Positions 50,369 through 54,556 of a stretch of 64,000 nucleotides of DNA are shown here, piece after piece (position 1 is the stretch's first letter; each line of letters opens with the position of its first letter). Source of the DNA: Neopararhizobium haloflavum. GTDB taxonomy: Bacteria > Pseudomonadota > Alphaproteobacteria > Rhizobiales > Rhizobiaceae. Where the stretch lies: NCBI RefSeq assembly GCF_002750855.1, contig NZ_NWUC01000005.1:62001-126000 (forward strand), read 5' to 3'. Below the pieces are notes generated by a model. It was not told the origin of the DNA. It saw only the letters and a list, made by a program, of their open reading frames with translations, and did no database searches. The translations under genes were made by a program, and so were the position numbers.

Positions 50369-53300
50369 CTATACCAGTTCGACGTCCACCACGCCGGGGG
50401 CCGCTTTCATCGCGGAGGCGACCTGCGGCGAGAGCCTGTAGCGGTCGGGCAGTTCGACCTCGATTTCCCGCTTGCCGTCTTCCTTGATGACGACGAATGA
50501 AACGAGCCCCTCGCCTCTTGCGTTGAGCTGTCCGGCGATCGCCCGCAGCGGCCCGCTGTCACGCACATAGACCCGAAGAGCAGTCTGCATCTGGACCGAA
50601 CGCTCTTCGAGCGACTGGACGGTCTGGATGCGCAGGCCGATGCCCTCCGGTCTTTCCTCCGCACTGACGACGATCACCAGGGACTGGCCCGGTTCGAGCA
50701 GATCCCGGTATTGCGCCAGGGCCTCGGAGAACAGGACGGCTTCGAACTGGCCCGAAGCATCGGAAAACATCACGATGCCCATCCTGTTCCCGGTCCGCGT
50801 CTTGCGCTCCTGTCGTCCAGTCACCGTACCGGCCAGTCGGCCGGCCGTTGCCCCCTTCTTAACCGCAATCGCGAAGTCGGCATAGGTCTGCACCCGAAGC
50901 TTGGCGAGGACGTCGGAATAATTGTCGAGCGGATGCGCCGAGAGATAAAAGCCCAGCACCTGATACTCGCGGTGAAGCATCTCGGCTGGCAGCCATGGTT
51001 CGCATTCGGGGAAATGGATGCGCTCGGGCCCTGTCGCCGCCCCCGCGCCGAACATGTCCCCCTGGCCAGAAATACGCGTTTCCGCCGCCCGTTGGGCAAA
51101 GCCGACCATCCGGTCGATCCCGGCGACGAGCTTTGCGCGGTCGAAGCCGAAACAATCCAGCGCCCCGGCCGCGATGAGATGTTCCAGCGTGCGGCGATTG
51201 ATGATCTTAGGGTCGATCCTCAGGCAGAAATCCTCGATCGAAGCGAATGGCCGGTCGCCGCGCACCGCGACGATGTGATCGACAGCCCCTTCGCCCACGC
51301 CCTTGATCGCGGCCAGCGAATAGTAGATGCGGTTTTCGCCGGTCTCGAATAGCCGGAAGGATGTCTGAACCGATGGCGGCACGATCTCGATGCCGAGCCG
51401 CCGCGCATCCTGGCGGAAGTCGTTGATCTTGTCCGTGTTCGCCATGTCGTAGGTCATCGACGCGGCGAGGAACTCGACCGGATAGTGCGCCTTCAGGTAG
51501 GCGGTCTGGTAAGAGACGATCCCGTAGGCGGCCGCATGCGACTTGTTGAAGCCGTAATTGGCGAACTTCGCCAGGAGGTCGAAGATCATGTCGGCCTGCG
51601 GCTTGGAAACGCCGCGTTCCACGGCGCCGGAGACGAAGCGCTCGCGCTGCTTGTCCATCTCCTCCTTGATCTTCTTGCCCATAGCGCGGCGCAACAGGTC
51701 GGCTTCGCCGAGCGAATAGCCGGCCAGCACCTGCGCGATCTGCATCACCTGTTCCTGGTAGACGATGACGCCCTGGGTTTCGGAAAGGATATGGTCGATC
51801 TTGGGGTGGATCGAGGCGACTTCTTCCTCGCCGTGCTTGCGGGCGTTGTAGACCGGAATGTTCTCCATCGGCCCCGGCCGATAGAGCGCGACAAGCGCGA
51901 TGATGTCCTCGATGCGGTCAGGCTTCATGCCGATCAGCGCCTTGCGCATCCCGGCCGATTCCACCTGAAACACACCGACCGTCTCGCCGCGCGACATCAT
52001 CTCGTAGGTCGGGCGGTCATCGAGCGGCAGGGCGGCAAGATCGATCGCGACCCCGCGCTTGGTGACGAAATCGACTGCCGTCTTGAGTACCGTCAGCGTT
52101 TTGAGGCCCAGGAAGTCGAACTTCACCAGCCCGGCCTGCTCCACCCACTTCATGTTGAACTGGGTGACGGGCATGTCCGAACGCGGGTCGCGGTACATCG
52201 GCACCAGCTTGGCCAGCGGGCGATCGCCGATAACGATGCCGGCCGCATGGGTCGAGGCGTGGCGGTAGAGCCCTTCGAGCTTCTGCGCGATATCGAGCAG
52301 CTTGGCGACCACCGGCTCGGCCTCCGCCGCTTCACGCAGCCGCGGCTCTTCCTCGATGGCCTTCGATAGCGGCGTCGGATTGGCGGGATTGTTGGGCACC
52401 AGCTTGCAGATCTTGTCGACCTGCCCGTAAGGCATCTCAAGCACACGCCCGACGTCGCGCAGCGCCGCGCGTGCCTGGAGCGATCCGAAGGTGATGATCT
52501 GGCCGACCTGTTCGCGCCCGTATTTGCCCTGAACGTAGCGGATCACCTCCTCGCGCCGATCCTGGCAGAAATCGATGTCGAAGTCCGGCATGGAAACGCG
52601 CGCCGGATTGAGGAAGCGCTCGAAAAGCAGCGAAAAGCGCAGCGGGTCGACATCCGTGATCGTCAATGCATAGGCAACGAGCGAGCCAGCGCCCGATCCG
52701 CGGCCGGGCCCGACGGGGATGGTCTGCGTCTTGGCCCATTTGATGAAGTCCGCGACGATCAGGAAGTAGCCGGGAAACTTCATGTTCTCGATGATGTCGA
52801 GCTCCAGCTTCAGCCGGTCGCGGTAATCCGCCTCGTCAAATCCGGGCGCAAGGCCGAGACGGTCGATGCGATCGGCAAGTCCATCTTCCGCCTGACGGCG
52901 CAACTCTGCGCTTTCGGCAAGGTTGTCGGCGTCCGCGTCGTCCGTCGCCCCCGTGAAACGAGGCAGGATCGGCTTGACGGTCGAGAGAAGATGCGAGCAC
53001 CGCAGCGCGATCTCGATCGTGTTCTCCAGCGCCTCAGGCAGATCCGCGAAAAGCGCCGCCATCTCGTCCTGGCTGCGCAGGCAATGGCTTTCGCTCAGCC
53101 TGAAACGGTTGTCGTCGGAGACCATCGCATTATGCGCGACCGCCATCAGCGCGTCATGCGCCTCGAAATCGCTGGGCTTGAGGAAAAACGCCTCATTGGT
53201 CGCAACGATCGGCAACGCATGCGCATAGGCGAGCGCCAGCATCTTTTCTTCGCGCTTGCGATCATGGTTTTTCGGTCGTTGCAGCTCGACGTAGAGCCTG

Positions 53301-53860
53301 TCGCCGAAAAGATCCTTGAGCCGCGAAAGAGCCGCCTCCGCCCGCGGCCCGTCGCCGTCAGAGAGCGCCCTGTCGACTGGCCCGGTCGCCGCGCCCGTCA
53401 GCGCGATCAGCCCGTCCGTTCCCCCTTCGCCGAGCCAGGACTGGCGGATATGCGGCGGTTCGGCCCCGGTACCCTCCAGATAGGCGCGGCTGACGAGGTC
53501 GACTAGCCGTGCATAGCCTTCGTCGCTGGCCGCGATCAGCACGATCGATGGCAGTCGGGGCGCCACCTCGCGCGCATTGCGTTTCTCGCCGGTCGCGCCG
53601 TCCTCCATGTCGATGTCGAGCTGGCAGCCGATGATCGGCTGGACGCCGGCTTCCTGTGCCTTGACCGAGAACTCGAGCGCGCCGAACAGATTGTTCGTAT
53701 CGGCAACGCAGACCGCCGGCTGCTTGTCCGCCACCGTCTGGGCAATGATCTTCTTGATCGGCAGCGCGCCTTCGAGCAGCGAATAGGAGGAATGCACCCG
53801 CAGATGGATGAACTTCAGCGCGTCATGCGCCTGCGCGGTTTCGCTGCCGGTTGCATCCAT
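50369..53860 (-). CDS. dnaE: DNA polymerase III alpha subunit (DnaE1)
   Basis: 1163 residues. PHP domain at the start (FIHLRVHSSYSLLEGALPIKK), then the polymerase palm with GPGRGSGAGSLVAYAL and PDFDIDFCQDRREEVI, which carry the catalytic aspartates. HASTHAAGIVIGD and NYGFNKSHAAAYG are typical DnaE1 fingers motifs. OB-fold and tau-binding C-terminal regions follow. This is the replicative polymerase, not the LexA-controlled DnaE2, which is shorter and lies with imuAB. The start is the ATG 53860. A short SOS-type gene lies 148 nt upstream on the same strand. Confidence 0.97.
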   Translation of the reverse strand: MDATGSETAQAHDALKFIHLRVHSSYSLLEGALPIKKIIAQTVADKQPAVCVADTNNLFGALEFSVKAQEAGVQPIIGCQLDIDMEDGATGEKRNAREVAPRLPSIVLIAASDEGYARLVDLVSRAYLEGTGAEPPHIRQSWLGEGGTDGLIALTGAATGPVDRALSDGDGPRAEAALSRLKDLFGDRLYVELQRPKNHDRKREEKMLALAYAHALPIVATNEAFFLKPSDFEAHDALMAVAHNAMVSDDNRFRLSESHCLRSQDEMAALFADLPEALENTIEIALRCSHLLSTVKPILPRFTGATDDADADNLAESAELRRQAEDGLADRIDRLGLAPGFDEADYRDRLKLELDIIENMKFPGYFLIVADFIKWAKTQTIPVGPGRGSGAGSLVAYALTITDVDPLRFSLLFERFLNPARVSMPDFDIDFCQDRREEVIRYVQGKYGREQVGQIITFGSLQARAALRDVGRVLEMPYGQVDKICKLVPNNPANPTPLSKAIEEEPRLREAAEAEPVVAKLLDIAQKLEGLYRHASTHAAGIVIGDRPLAKLVPMYRDPRSDMPVTQFNMKWVEQAGLVKFDFLGLKTLTVLKTAVDFVTKRGVAIDLAALPLDDRPTYEMMSRGETVGVFQVESAGMRKALIGMKPDRIEDIIALVALYRPGPMENIPVYNARKHGEEEVASIHPKIDHILSETQGVIVYQEQVMQIAQVLAGYSLGEADLLRRAMGKKIKEEMDKQRERFVSGAVERGVSKPQADMIFDLLAKFANYGFNKSHAAAYGIVSYQTAYLKAHYPVEFLAASMTYDMANTDKINDFRQDARRLGIEIVPPSVQTSFRLFETGENRIYYSLAAIKGVGEGAVDHIVAVRGDRPFASIEDFCLRIDPKIINRRTLEHLIAAGALDCFGFDRAKLVAGIDRMVGFAQRAAETRISGQGDMFGAGAATGPERIHFPECEPWLPAEMLHREYQVLGFYLSAHPLDNYSDVLAKLRVQTYADFAIAVKKGATAGRLAGTVTGRQERKTRTGNRMGIVMFSDASGQFEAVLFSEALAQYRDLLEPGQSLVIVVSAEERPEGIGLRIQTVQSLEERSVQMQTALRVYVRDSGPLRAIAGQLNARGEGLVSFVVIKEDGKREIEVELPDRYRLSPQVASAMKAAPGVVDVELV

Positions 53861-54008: not shown

Positions 54009-54095
54009 TCAAAGCGCCATTGCCATGACCGAAAAACTCGCAACGAACATGGAGATCGATGTGAAAGCCAGGATATCGCGAAGGATGTGCGTCAT
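54009..54095 (-). CDS. 28-residue membrane peptide, SOS-type regulation (SidA-like candidate)
   Basis: ATG 54095 to TGA 54009 encodes 28 residues: a short polar N-terminus (MTHILRDIL) and a hydrophobic helix (AFTSISMFVASFSVMAMAL) that would span or lie in the inner membrane. GGAG with 7-nt spacing precedes the ATG. A promoter with a perfect LexA box lies just upstream. In Caulobacter, SidA is a 29-residue, LexA-controlled inner-membrane peptide that blocks division through FtsW/FtsN. Size, topology and regulation match, but I could not compare sequences. Neighbours are TfoX upstream and dnaE downstream. It is too short for normal gene calling. Confidence 0.6.
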   Translation of the reverse strand: MTHILRDILAFTSISMFVASFSVMAMAL

Positions 54096-54124
54096 GGGTC
54101 AACTCCGTTTTCCGTTATGACCCA

Positions 54125-54153
54125 TTTATGTTCTGGTTTTGTTCTATTGTAAA
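54125..54153 (-). promoter_or_regulatory. Promoter with LexA box in its spacer
   Basis: On the minus strand: -35 TTTACA (54153-54148), 17-nt spacer, -10 CATAAA (54130-54125). The transcript would start near 54118, about 22 nt before the ATG at 54095. The LexA box at 54130-54144 fills the spacer. Read on that strand it is GAAC-N7-GAAC. Confidence 0.65.
54130..54144. promoter_or_regulatory. LexA box GTTC-N7-GTTC
   Basis: GTTC-TGGTTTT-GTTC is an exact match to the direct-repeat LexA site of Alphaproteobacteria. Bound LexA would cover the -10/-35 spacer of the small gene. Confidence 0.8.
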
Positions 54154-54220: not shown

Positions 54221-54556
54221 CTAAGGGCGCCGCCGGCCGTCGGTGGCCCCGCGCAACGCCGCTTCATGCGCCTCGACCAGCCAGACGCGACGTGCCTCCG
54301 GATCATCGAGGGCGCAATCGGGAACGCTCCAGTACGGCATTTTGACCGGCTTCGACTTCCCCTGATATTGCCATTGCGTGGCGCCCGCTGCGGCGAAGCG
54401 GGGTCCACTGTCGGCATCGGCTTTCAGGAGAAGCTCGCCGCCAAGTTCGATCGCGATGATCCGCCCTTCGAAATAGATTCCCTTTCCACCGAACATGCGG
54501 CGGATGGAGACCGGTCCGAGCGGCAGGAAGAAATCCTCGATATCGATAATGTCCAT
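54221..54556 (-). CDS. TfoX/Sxy N-terminal domain protein
   Basis: 111 residues. IRRMFGGKGIYFEGRIIAIELGGELLLKADADS is the TfoX N-terminal signature, followed by KMPYWSVPDCALDDPEA. Gamma-proteobacterial TfoX/Sxy controls competence with CRP; single-domain relatives elsewhere are of unknown role. It is the last gene of the molybdenum-maturation series on this strand, 42 nt after the MobA fusion gene. Confidence 0.88.
   Translation of the reverse strand: MDIIDIEDFFLPLGPVSIRRMFGGKGIYFEGRIIAIELGGELLLKADADSGPRFAAAGATQWQYQGKSKPVKMPYWSVPDCALDDPEARRVWLVEAHEAALRGATDGRRRP

What the first reader, a model, noticed from the sequence alone, without database searches (positions are those of the whole stretch)
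54009..54153. A 28-residue membrane peptide under a perfect LexA box: candidate SidA-like SOS division inhibitor
The longest protein-gene-free gap contains a promoter (-35 TTTACA, 17-nt spacer, -10 CATAAA) whose spacer holds an exact GTTC-N7-GTTC LexA site. A GGAG ribosome-binding site and a 28-codon hydrophobic ORF follow. Caulobacter SidA is a 29-residue LexA-controlled inner-membrane inhibitor of FtsW/FtsN. An SOS peptide of the same size next to dnaE in a Hyphomicrobiales-like genome would be an unannotated family.
Basis: partly seen in the sequence, partly recalled or inferred. Interest (0 to 1): 0.88.

Follow-up and report, generated by a model that had tools for sequence, protein, structure and literature searches.

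The report
SOS cell-division inhibitor SidA in rhizobia
A 28-residue membrane peptide encoded next to the replicative DNA polymerase gene carries a DNA-damage (LexA) switch and is most likely the rhizobial version of SidA, the peptide that stops Caulobacter from dividing while its DNA is broken; the sources checked here do not annotate it.

Summary
A -35 (TTTACA), a 17-nt spacer holding a perfect LexA box, a -10 (CATAAA) and a GGAG site precede a 28-codon hydrophobic ORF (54095-54009), 148 nt upstream of dnaE1. It is a real, conserved gene. Of 139 distinct loci tallied (3 of them chance hits), 123 have an exact LexA box within 120 nt upstream and 105 have dnaE1 within 700 nt downstream. Selection acts on the protein (pN/pS 0.19). 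Sixteen of 16 dnaE1 loci without the peptide also lack the box, and 12 of those 16 genomes carry peptide plus box elsewhere.

In a Caulobacter genome the same place (nucleoside hydrolase - LexA box - 29-aa ORF - dnaE1) is held by what is, by length, box and gene order, SidA. Caulobacter-type peptides match the rhizobial profile without gaps, better than any of 300 permuted controls. The gene is best read as a SidA ortholog: an SOS-induced FtsW/FtsN-directed division inhibitor. Induction and division block are inferred, not shown. An S. meliloti sORF at this place was reported translated and read as a possible dnaE1 uORF. Three Rhizobium phages carry a homolog without a LexA box.

The parts
54009..54095 (-). 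sidA ORF, 28 aa MTHILRDILAFTSISMFVASFSVMAMAL (stop included)
   Evidence: homologs; pN/pS 0.19 in the family
54130..54144 (-). LexA (SOS) box GAACAAAACCAGAAC
   Evidence: exact box in 123 of 139 tallied loci
54148..54153 (-). -35 element TTTACA
   Evidence: sequence; TTGAC/TTTAC 5-12 nt ahead of an exact box in 89 of 139 loci
54125..54130 (-). -10 element CATAAA, overlapping the last base of the box
   Evidence: sequence
54103..54106 (-). Shine-Dalgarno GGAG, 7 nt before the ATG
   Evidence: sequence
50369..53860 (-). dnaE1, replicative DNA polymerase III alpha subunit, 148 nt downstream of the peptide gene on the same strand
   Evidence: (NF004226, 1481.8 bits)
54221..54556 (-). upstream neighbour with TfoX_N domain (S. 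meliloti has an ABC-transporter gene here instead)
   Evidence: PF04993, 6.3e-25; S. meliloti order

Best explanation
The ORF is sidA, orthologous to the Caulobacter SOS division inhibitor. LexA bound between -35 and -10 keeps the promoter shut. DNA damage activates RecA, LexA cleaves itself, and a short leader with a good ribosome site gives a burst of a 28-residue single-helix inner-membrane peptide (short N-terminus with the conserved Arg-Asp, then about 20 uncharged residues). By analogy with Caulobacter it binds FtsW/FtsN in the membrane and holds the FtsW/FtsI/FtsN septal synthase inactive, so cells grow as filaments until LexA returns. Shown here: promoter anatomy, conservation, selection on the protein, coupling of box and peptide, orthologous position in Caulobacter. 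Inferred: repression and induction, membrane insertion, divisome target. Because dnaE1 lies about 150 nt downstream, readthrough may also raise dnaE1 during SOS (inferred).
For: Family: 363 of 395 GTDB-family genomes match the profile at E<=1, 104 of 109 by genus (loose cut-off, only part inspected). Of 139 distinct loci tallied, 123 have an exact box, 132 with one mismatch, 105 have dnaE1 within 700 nt on the same strand, 101 are exactly 28 aa. Order level: of 18 loci read from other families, 15 have an exact box and 3 one mismatch. Box follows peptide, not dnaE: 16 of 16 dnaE loci without the peptide have no exact box in either orientation in the 700 nt upstream (352 nt held for one), and 12 of those 16 genomes carry peptide+box elsewhere. 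Selection: 35 independent pairs, pN/pS 0.19; differences at codon positions 1/2/3 = 112/24/290. Caulobacter sp. Root343: of 17 strict boxes (0 in the reversed control) one precedes a 29-aa ORF [29 protein letters not shown] between an IU_nuc_hydro gene and dnaE1. Published: sidA = CCNA_02004 (PMC11034885), CCNA_02005 = inosine-uridine nucleoside hydrolase (PMC3667746), dnaE1 = CC1926 (PMC1839093). Four Caulobacter-type rows against the rhizobial profile: hhalign score 25.5, 0 of 300 column-permuted controls reach it. SidA is a 29-aa inner-membrane FtsW-binding SOS inhibitor (PMC4211646). S. meliloti Ak57 encodes MADFVRDLAAFASMSLFIVSISVIALGL behind tandem boxes upstream of dnaE; an sORF in the dnaE1 5' UTR was reported translated (PMC10117765). 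No SulA match in the genome.
Against: No expression, localisation or division assay. Identity of the window peptide to the Caulobacter peptide is 32%, and the Caulobacter FVW motif is absent in the window. I did not see the published SidA sequence; it was identified by length, box and gene order. With the family profile 1 and 3 of 2000 simple shuffles reached the score of two of the four Caulobacter-type peptides; with the order profile 7 of 2000 did for a third. Four homologs have no box even with one mismatch (L024, L094, L171, L174). Outside the order only few members turned up: 25 of 30 class-level dnaE loci have neither box nor peptide, and of 385 class genomes 21 matched at E<=0.1, two of them convincing besides the window.
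Confidence: 0.82

Rival explanations
1. Leader peptide / uORF: translation of the short ORF tunes expression of dnaE1 and the peptide itself does nothing.
For: Usual position 90-538 nt upstream of dnaE1 on the same strand; the S. meliloti authors suggested uORF roles for some 5'-UTR sORFs and named sORF25 among the noteworthy ones (PMC10117765).
Against: 31 of 136 members have no dnaE1 in the fetched stretch downstream (about 1.5-2 kb), and 28 of these 31 still have an exact box. By coordinates the two are far apart in some genomes: about 372 kb in G018, 461 kb in G098, 149 kb in G085. Neighbours there include carB on the same strand (L066), and ggt (L173), lipB-like (L170, below Pfam's cut-off) or RNB-domain (L177) genes on the other strand. 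Residues are conserved: pN/pS 0.19. dnaE1 loci without the peptide also lack the box.
Confidence: 0.07
2. SOS-induced membrane toxin of the TisB/DinQ type that depolarises the membrane rather than acting on the divisome.
For: Similar size, LexA control and single hydrophobic helix; DinQ is a toxic SOS single-transmembrane peptide (PMC3567139, start of abstract).
Against: Short leader with a good ribosome site; positional and profile match to the Caulobacter SidA locus; helix without charged residues after Asp7. An antisense RNA was not tested for.
Confidence: 0.09
3. Chance ORF under a chance box.
For: 150 exact boxes in the genome against 90 for the reversed pattern, so bare boxes are common.
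Against: Joint conservation and purifying selection; 0 joint hits in 40 random windows.
Confidence: 0.01

Closest known systems
SidA of Caulobacter crescentus (CCNA_02004; 29 aa, LexA-controlled inner-membrane inhibitor acting on FtsW/FtsN)
   Same: Length 28 vs 29 aa; LexA box in the promoter; upstream of dnaE1; ungapped match with shared M1, (R/K)6-(D/E)7, small-hydrophobic residues at 10-11, mostly Ser13 and Phe17; one hydrophobic stretch.
   Different: 32% identity to the Root343 peptide; lacks the FVW of Caulobacter-type peptides; upstream neighbour differs (TfoX_N gene instead of nucleoside hydrolase); no functional data.
sORF25 of Sinorhizobium meliloti 2011 (PMC10117765)
   Same: Small ORF in the dnaE1 5' UTR, the place where S. 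meliloti Ak57 encodes the homolog.
   Different: Reported as translated and as a possible uORF; the words LexA, SOS and SidA do not occur in the main text. Its letters are in supplements I could not open, so identity with my ORF is inferred from position.
Other damage-induced division inhibitors: SulA, YneA, SosA, DidA
   Same: Damage-induced division block; DidA is a 71-aa single-helix membrane protein; YneA and SosA are small membrane proteins (recalled).
   Different: SulA acts on FtsZ (recalled) and has no match here; DidA is longer and SOS-independent (PMC4211646); YneA and SosA are longer (recalled).
TisB / DinQ
   Same: LexA-controlled short peptides with one membrane helix (DinQ: abstract; TisB recalled).
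   Different: Type I toxins with antisense RNAs in enterobacteria (DinQ: abstract; TisB recalled); no comparison with their sequences was made.

Membership tests
SidA | About 29-aa peptide with one membrane helix | tested here: met
   28 aa, no charge after residue 7; 101 of 139 tallied loci are exactly 28 aa. Judged from sequence; membrane insertion not tested and no structure predicted.
SidA | LexA-controlled promoter | tested here: met
   Exact box inside the -35/-10 spacer; 123 of 139 tallied loci. A box of the same form precedes ssb in the same genome. LexA binding not tested.
SidA | Sequence relation to Caulobacter SidA | tested here: met
   hhalign 25.5, 0 of 300 permuted controls; wider outer set 96.4% over 29 columns. 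Caulobacter sequence identified by position, not from the original paper.
SidA | Position upstream of dnaE1 | tested here: met
   Window and 105 of 139 tallied loci (window included); Caulobacter sp. Root343 and three further genomes of one family nearest to it by DnaE.
SidA | Induced by DNA damage in a RecA/LexA-dependent way | not testable with these tools
   Needs RNA data.
SidA | Blocks division through FtsW/FtsN | not testable with these tools
   Known for Caulobacter (PMC4211646, passages); not assayed here.
SulA | SulA domain PF03846 | tested here: not met
   No match in the window's genome at E<=1.
dnaE1 leader peptide | Always tied to dnaE1 | tested here: not met
   31 of 136 members have no dnaE1 in the fetched downstream stretch, 28 of them with an exact box.
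TisB/DinQ type I toxin | Adjacent antisense RNA antitoxin | not tested
   No Rfam search was made.

The most novel reading that the evidence does not exclude
SidA is the ancestral DNA-damage division checkpoint of much of the Alphaproteobacteria, usually carried as the first gene of a sidA-dnaE1 unit, so that damage raises both the division brake and the replicative polymerase; Rhizobium phages have captured it without the LexA box as a constitutive host-division blocker.
Probability: 0.35. Interest if true: 0.82.

Novelty: new member of a known kind. Interest (0 to 1): 0.7.

Why it matters
It names a likely SOS division inhibitor for a whole order of plant- and animal-associated bacteria; none of the papers listed in my ten searches names one there. 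It suggests that a tiny peptide known from one model genus is an old, selected gene missed by annotation. It gives a ready test in S. meliloti, where translation of an sORF at the locus is already reported, and raises the question why the division brake sits beside the replicative polymerase gene.

Tried and rejected
Rejected: chance ORF; pure dnaE1 leader; SulA. Pfam and NCBIfam gave nothing for the peptide; PHROGs nothing for the phage homolog or three phage neighbours. The class-wide profile search matched 21 of 385 genomes at E<=0.1, window included. Of the loci L148-L167 fetched from it, only L148 and L163 (the same peptide as in L249) look real; three others that passed the tally (L150, L155, L164) have no box, and the rest did not pass it. 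A first Caulobacter pattern (TTGAC then box) missed sidA; the looser pattern found it. A viral-contig scan with five 28-aa rows confirmed nothing: 26 pattern matches, 0 relatives.

Literature: ten searches listed no paper that by title or abstract start names a SidA homolog in rhizobia. Of the listed papers I read passages of eight only. The original SidA paper (Genes Dev 2011) and the Erill 2004 LexA-regulon paper are not held, so earlier notice of homologs there cannot be excluded.

Full report
1. Observation. On the minus strand of the window a promoter (-35 TTTACA 54153-54148, 17-nt spacer, -10 CATAAA 54130-54125) holds an exact LexA box GAACAAAACCAGAAC at 54144-54130, followed by GGAG and the ATG of a 28-codon ORF (54095-54009), MTHILRDILAFTSISMFVASFSVMAMAL. 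The next gene on the same strand is dnaE1 (50369-53860), starting 148 nt after the stop. Upstream lies a TfoX_N-domain gene. Of three exact boxes in the window this one has the most A+T-rich core (5 of 7) and ATAA behind it. Box, -35, ribosome site and short hydrophobic ORF together occurred once here and never in 40 Markov-1 random windows. In the whole genome exact boxes are only mildly enriched (150 against 90 for the reversed pattern), so the box alone would be weak evidence. A box of the same form in this genome precedes ssb, a gene I recall as LexA-controlled with uvrA in rhizobia.

2. It is a gene. With the single peptide, 17 of 61 genomes (own one included) matched at E<=1. With a profile, 363 of 395 genomes of the same GTDB family matched at E<=1, 104 of 109 by genus; the cut-off is loose and I read only part of these. 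From the fetched loci L007-L191, 139 distinct members (score at least 13 bits, at most 45 aa) were tallied; three (L150, L155, L164) are class-level chance hits. Of the 139, 101 are exactly 28 aa, 135 start with ATG, 123 have an exact box within 120 nt upstream (70 of these 123 begin 47-49 nt before the start), 132 allow one mismatch, 89 have TTGAC or TTTAC 5-12 nt before an exact box, 105 have dnaE1 within 700 nt downstream. The tally mixes genomes chosen as best matches, one-per-genus picks and genomes chosen as weak ones, so it is not a random sample. Among 35 independent close pairs pN/pS is 0.19 and differences fall 112/24/290 on codon positions 1/2/3: the peptide is under purifying selection in this frame.

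3. The box belongs to the peptide, not to dnaE1. In 30 family genomes, picked mostly for weak or missing matches, I read the region upstream of dnaE. 14 of 30 have a peptide there, 12 of these 14 with an exact box. The other 16 have neither peptide nor an exact box in either orientation in the 700 nt upstream (352 nt held for L109). 12 of those 16 genomes carry a peptide with exact box elsewhere. Of the other four, G008 and G009 have no match at E<=1, G108 has two weak matches without a box, and G021 one weak match inside a 560-codon frame, not read further. In all, 31 of 136 members have no dnaE1 in the fetched stretch downstream and 28 of the 31 still have an exact box. Their neighbours include carB (L066; L023 begins alike), an opposite-strand gamma-glutamyltransferase gene (L173), an opposite-strand lipB-like gene (L170, match below Pfam's cut-off) and an opposite-strand RNB-domain gene (L177). 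A dnaE1 leader would not behave this way.

4. Beyond the family. In a sample of 297 genomes of the order, 72 matched at E<=0.1, 12 of them family members, own genome included. I read 18 loci from other families: 15 have an exact box, 3 one mismatch; 15 of the 18 are 32 aa, most with the head M-x4-(R/K)-D-x-A-A-(L/F). In a class-wide sample of 385 genomes, 21 matched at E<=0.1; besides the window only L148 and L163 are convincing, both with box and dnaE1.

5. Caulobacter. [quoted passage not shown] Its letters were in no passage I saw. I therefore searched a named genome, Caulobacter sp. Root343, for strict boxes: 17, against 0 reversed. One of them precedes a 29-aa ORF, [29 protein letters not shown], with GGAGG before its ATG. 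It sits between a divergent IU_nuc_hydro gene and dnaE1. In C. crescentus sidA is CCNA_02004 (PMC11034885, passage), CCNA_02005 is an inosine-uridine nucleoside hydrolase (PMC3667746, passage) and dnaE1 is CC1926 (PMC1839093, table passage). recN is CC1983 in one paper and ccna_02062 in another, an offset of 79, which puts dnaE1 next to 02004. So this ORF is SidA by length, box and gene order (inference, but a tight one). Three genomes of one family that is nearest to it by DnaE (L222-L224) also have a box and a 29-31 aa peptide there: [89 protein letters not shown]. Of the 30 class-level dnaE loci read, 5 have a box in this orientation and all 5 have a peptide (one, L224, was missed by the scan's filters and seen on reading). 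The other 25 have no such box and no peptide by that scan; two of them (L229, L234) have a G+C-rich box in the opposite orientation.

6. Relation. Four Caulobacter-type peptides against the rhizobial profile: hhalign probability 89.5%, score 25.5, aligned 1-20 to 1-20; 0 of 300 column-permuted controls reached it (maximum 19.6). With three more outer alphaproteobacterial peptides added: 96.4%, 29 columns. Single outer peptides against shuffles: 0-3 of 2000 reach the score with the family profile and 0-7 of 2000 with the order profile. Conserved points are M1, (Arg/Lys)6-(Asp/Glu)7, small-hydrophobic residues at 10-11, Ser13 in most, and Phe17. Similarity, LexA box and shared position together make common descent the best reading.

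7. S. meliloti. In strain Ak57, in a record labelled pSymB, the listed order is ABC transporter permease, ABC transporter ATPase, gap, dnaE; the gap holds MADFVRDLAAFASMSLFIVSISVIALGL behind tandem boxes, with no feature listed there (the collection's gene table is declared incomplete). A ribosome-profiling study lists sORF25 in the dnaE1 5' UTR as translated and suggests uORF roles for some such sORFs (PMC10117765, passages). I could not open its supplement, so sORF25 is equated with this ORF by position only.

8. Mechanism. Shown: promoter anatomy, conservation, selection, linkage of box and peptide, orthologous place in Caulobacter. Inferred: LexA repression, damage induction, membrane insertion, FtsW/FtsN target, division arrest. 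No SulA domain was found in this genome, so an SOS division inhibitor of another kind would fill a gap.

9. Phages. Three Rhizobium phages (B1VFA, V1VFA-S, RHph_X66) encode a 42-aa protein whose middle reads ARDGAAFLSMSLFIIAISI (two substitutions in this stretch in RHph_X66), close to the S. meliloti peptide; two viral contigs encode near-identical proteins (98% and 93%). The B1VFA copy scores 25.7 bits with 0 of 2000 shuffles. The three phage records have no exact box within 400 nt upstream. The tblastn E-values of the bacterial peptides against the phages are weak (0.04-1), but all hits in the phage collection are Rhizobium phages (2 of 2, 3 of 3, 2 of 2 records).

10. Verdict. It is a new member of a known kind, with a wider range than the passages I read mention.

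Noticed in passing
L193:1980-2105, L263:1501-1626, L264:1501-1626, L265, L266: Three Rhizobium phages and two viral contigs carry a 42-aa SidA-like peptide; the three phage copies have no LexA box within 400 nt upstream: possible phage-borne host-division inhibitor.
   Followed up: partly
L024, L171, L174: Copies without a LexA box; each of these genomes (G019, G085, G011) also has a copy with an exact box (L017, L182, L183), so these may be paralogs that escaped SOS control.
   Followed up: no
L012, L013, L026, L029, L126 and others: 28 of 136 homologs have two overlapping exact boxes 11 nt apart (GAAC-N7-GAAC-N7-GAAC), which might bind two LexA dimers; the window has one.
   Followed up: partly
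L254, about 1494-1508 (own genome, C7): Exact box GAACAAAAAAAGAAC just upstream of ssb, an internal positive control for the SOS box of this genome.
   Followed up: yes
window 54221-54556: TfoX_N-domain gene directly upstream of sidA in the window; the three same-genus loci L014-L016 have it too, S. meliloti has ABC-transporter genes there: the upstream side of the locus was rearranged.
   Followed up: no
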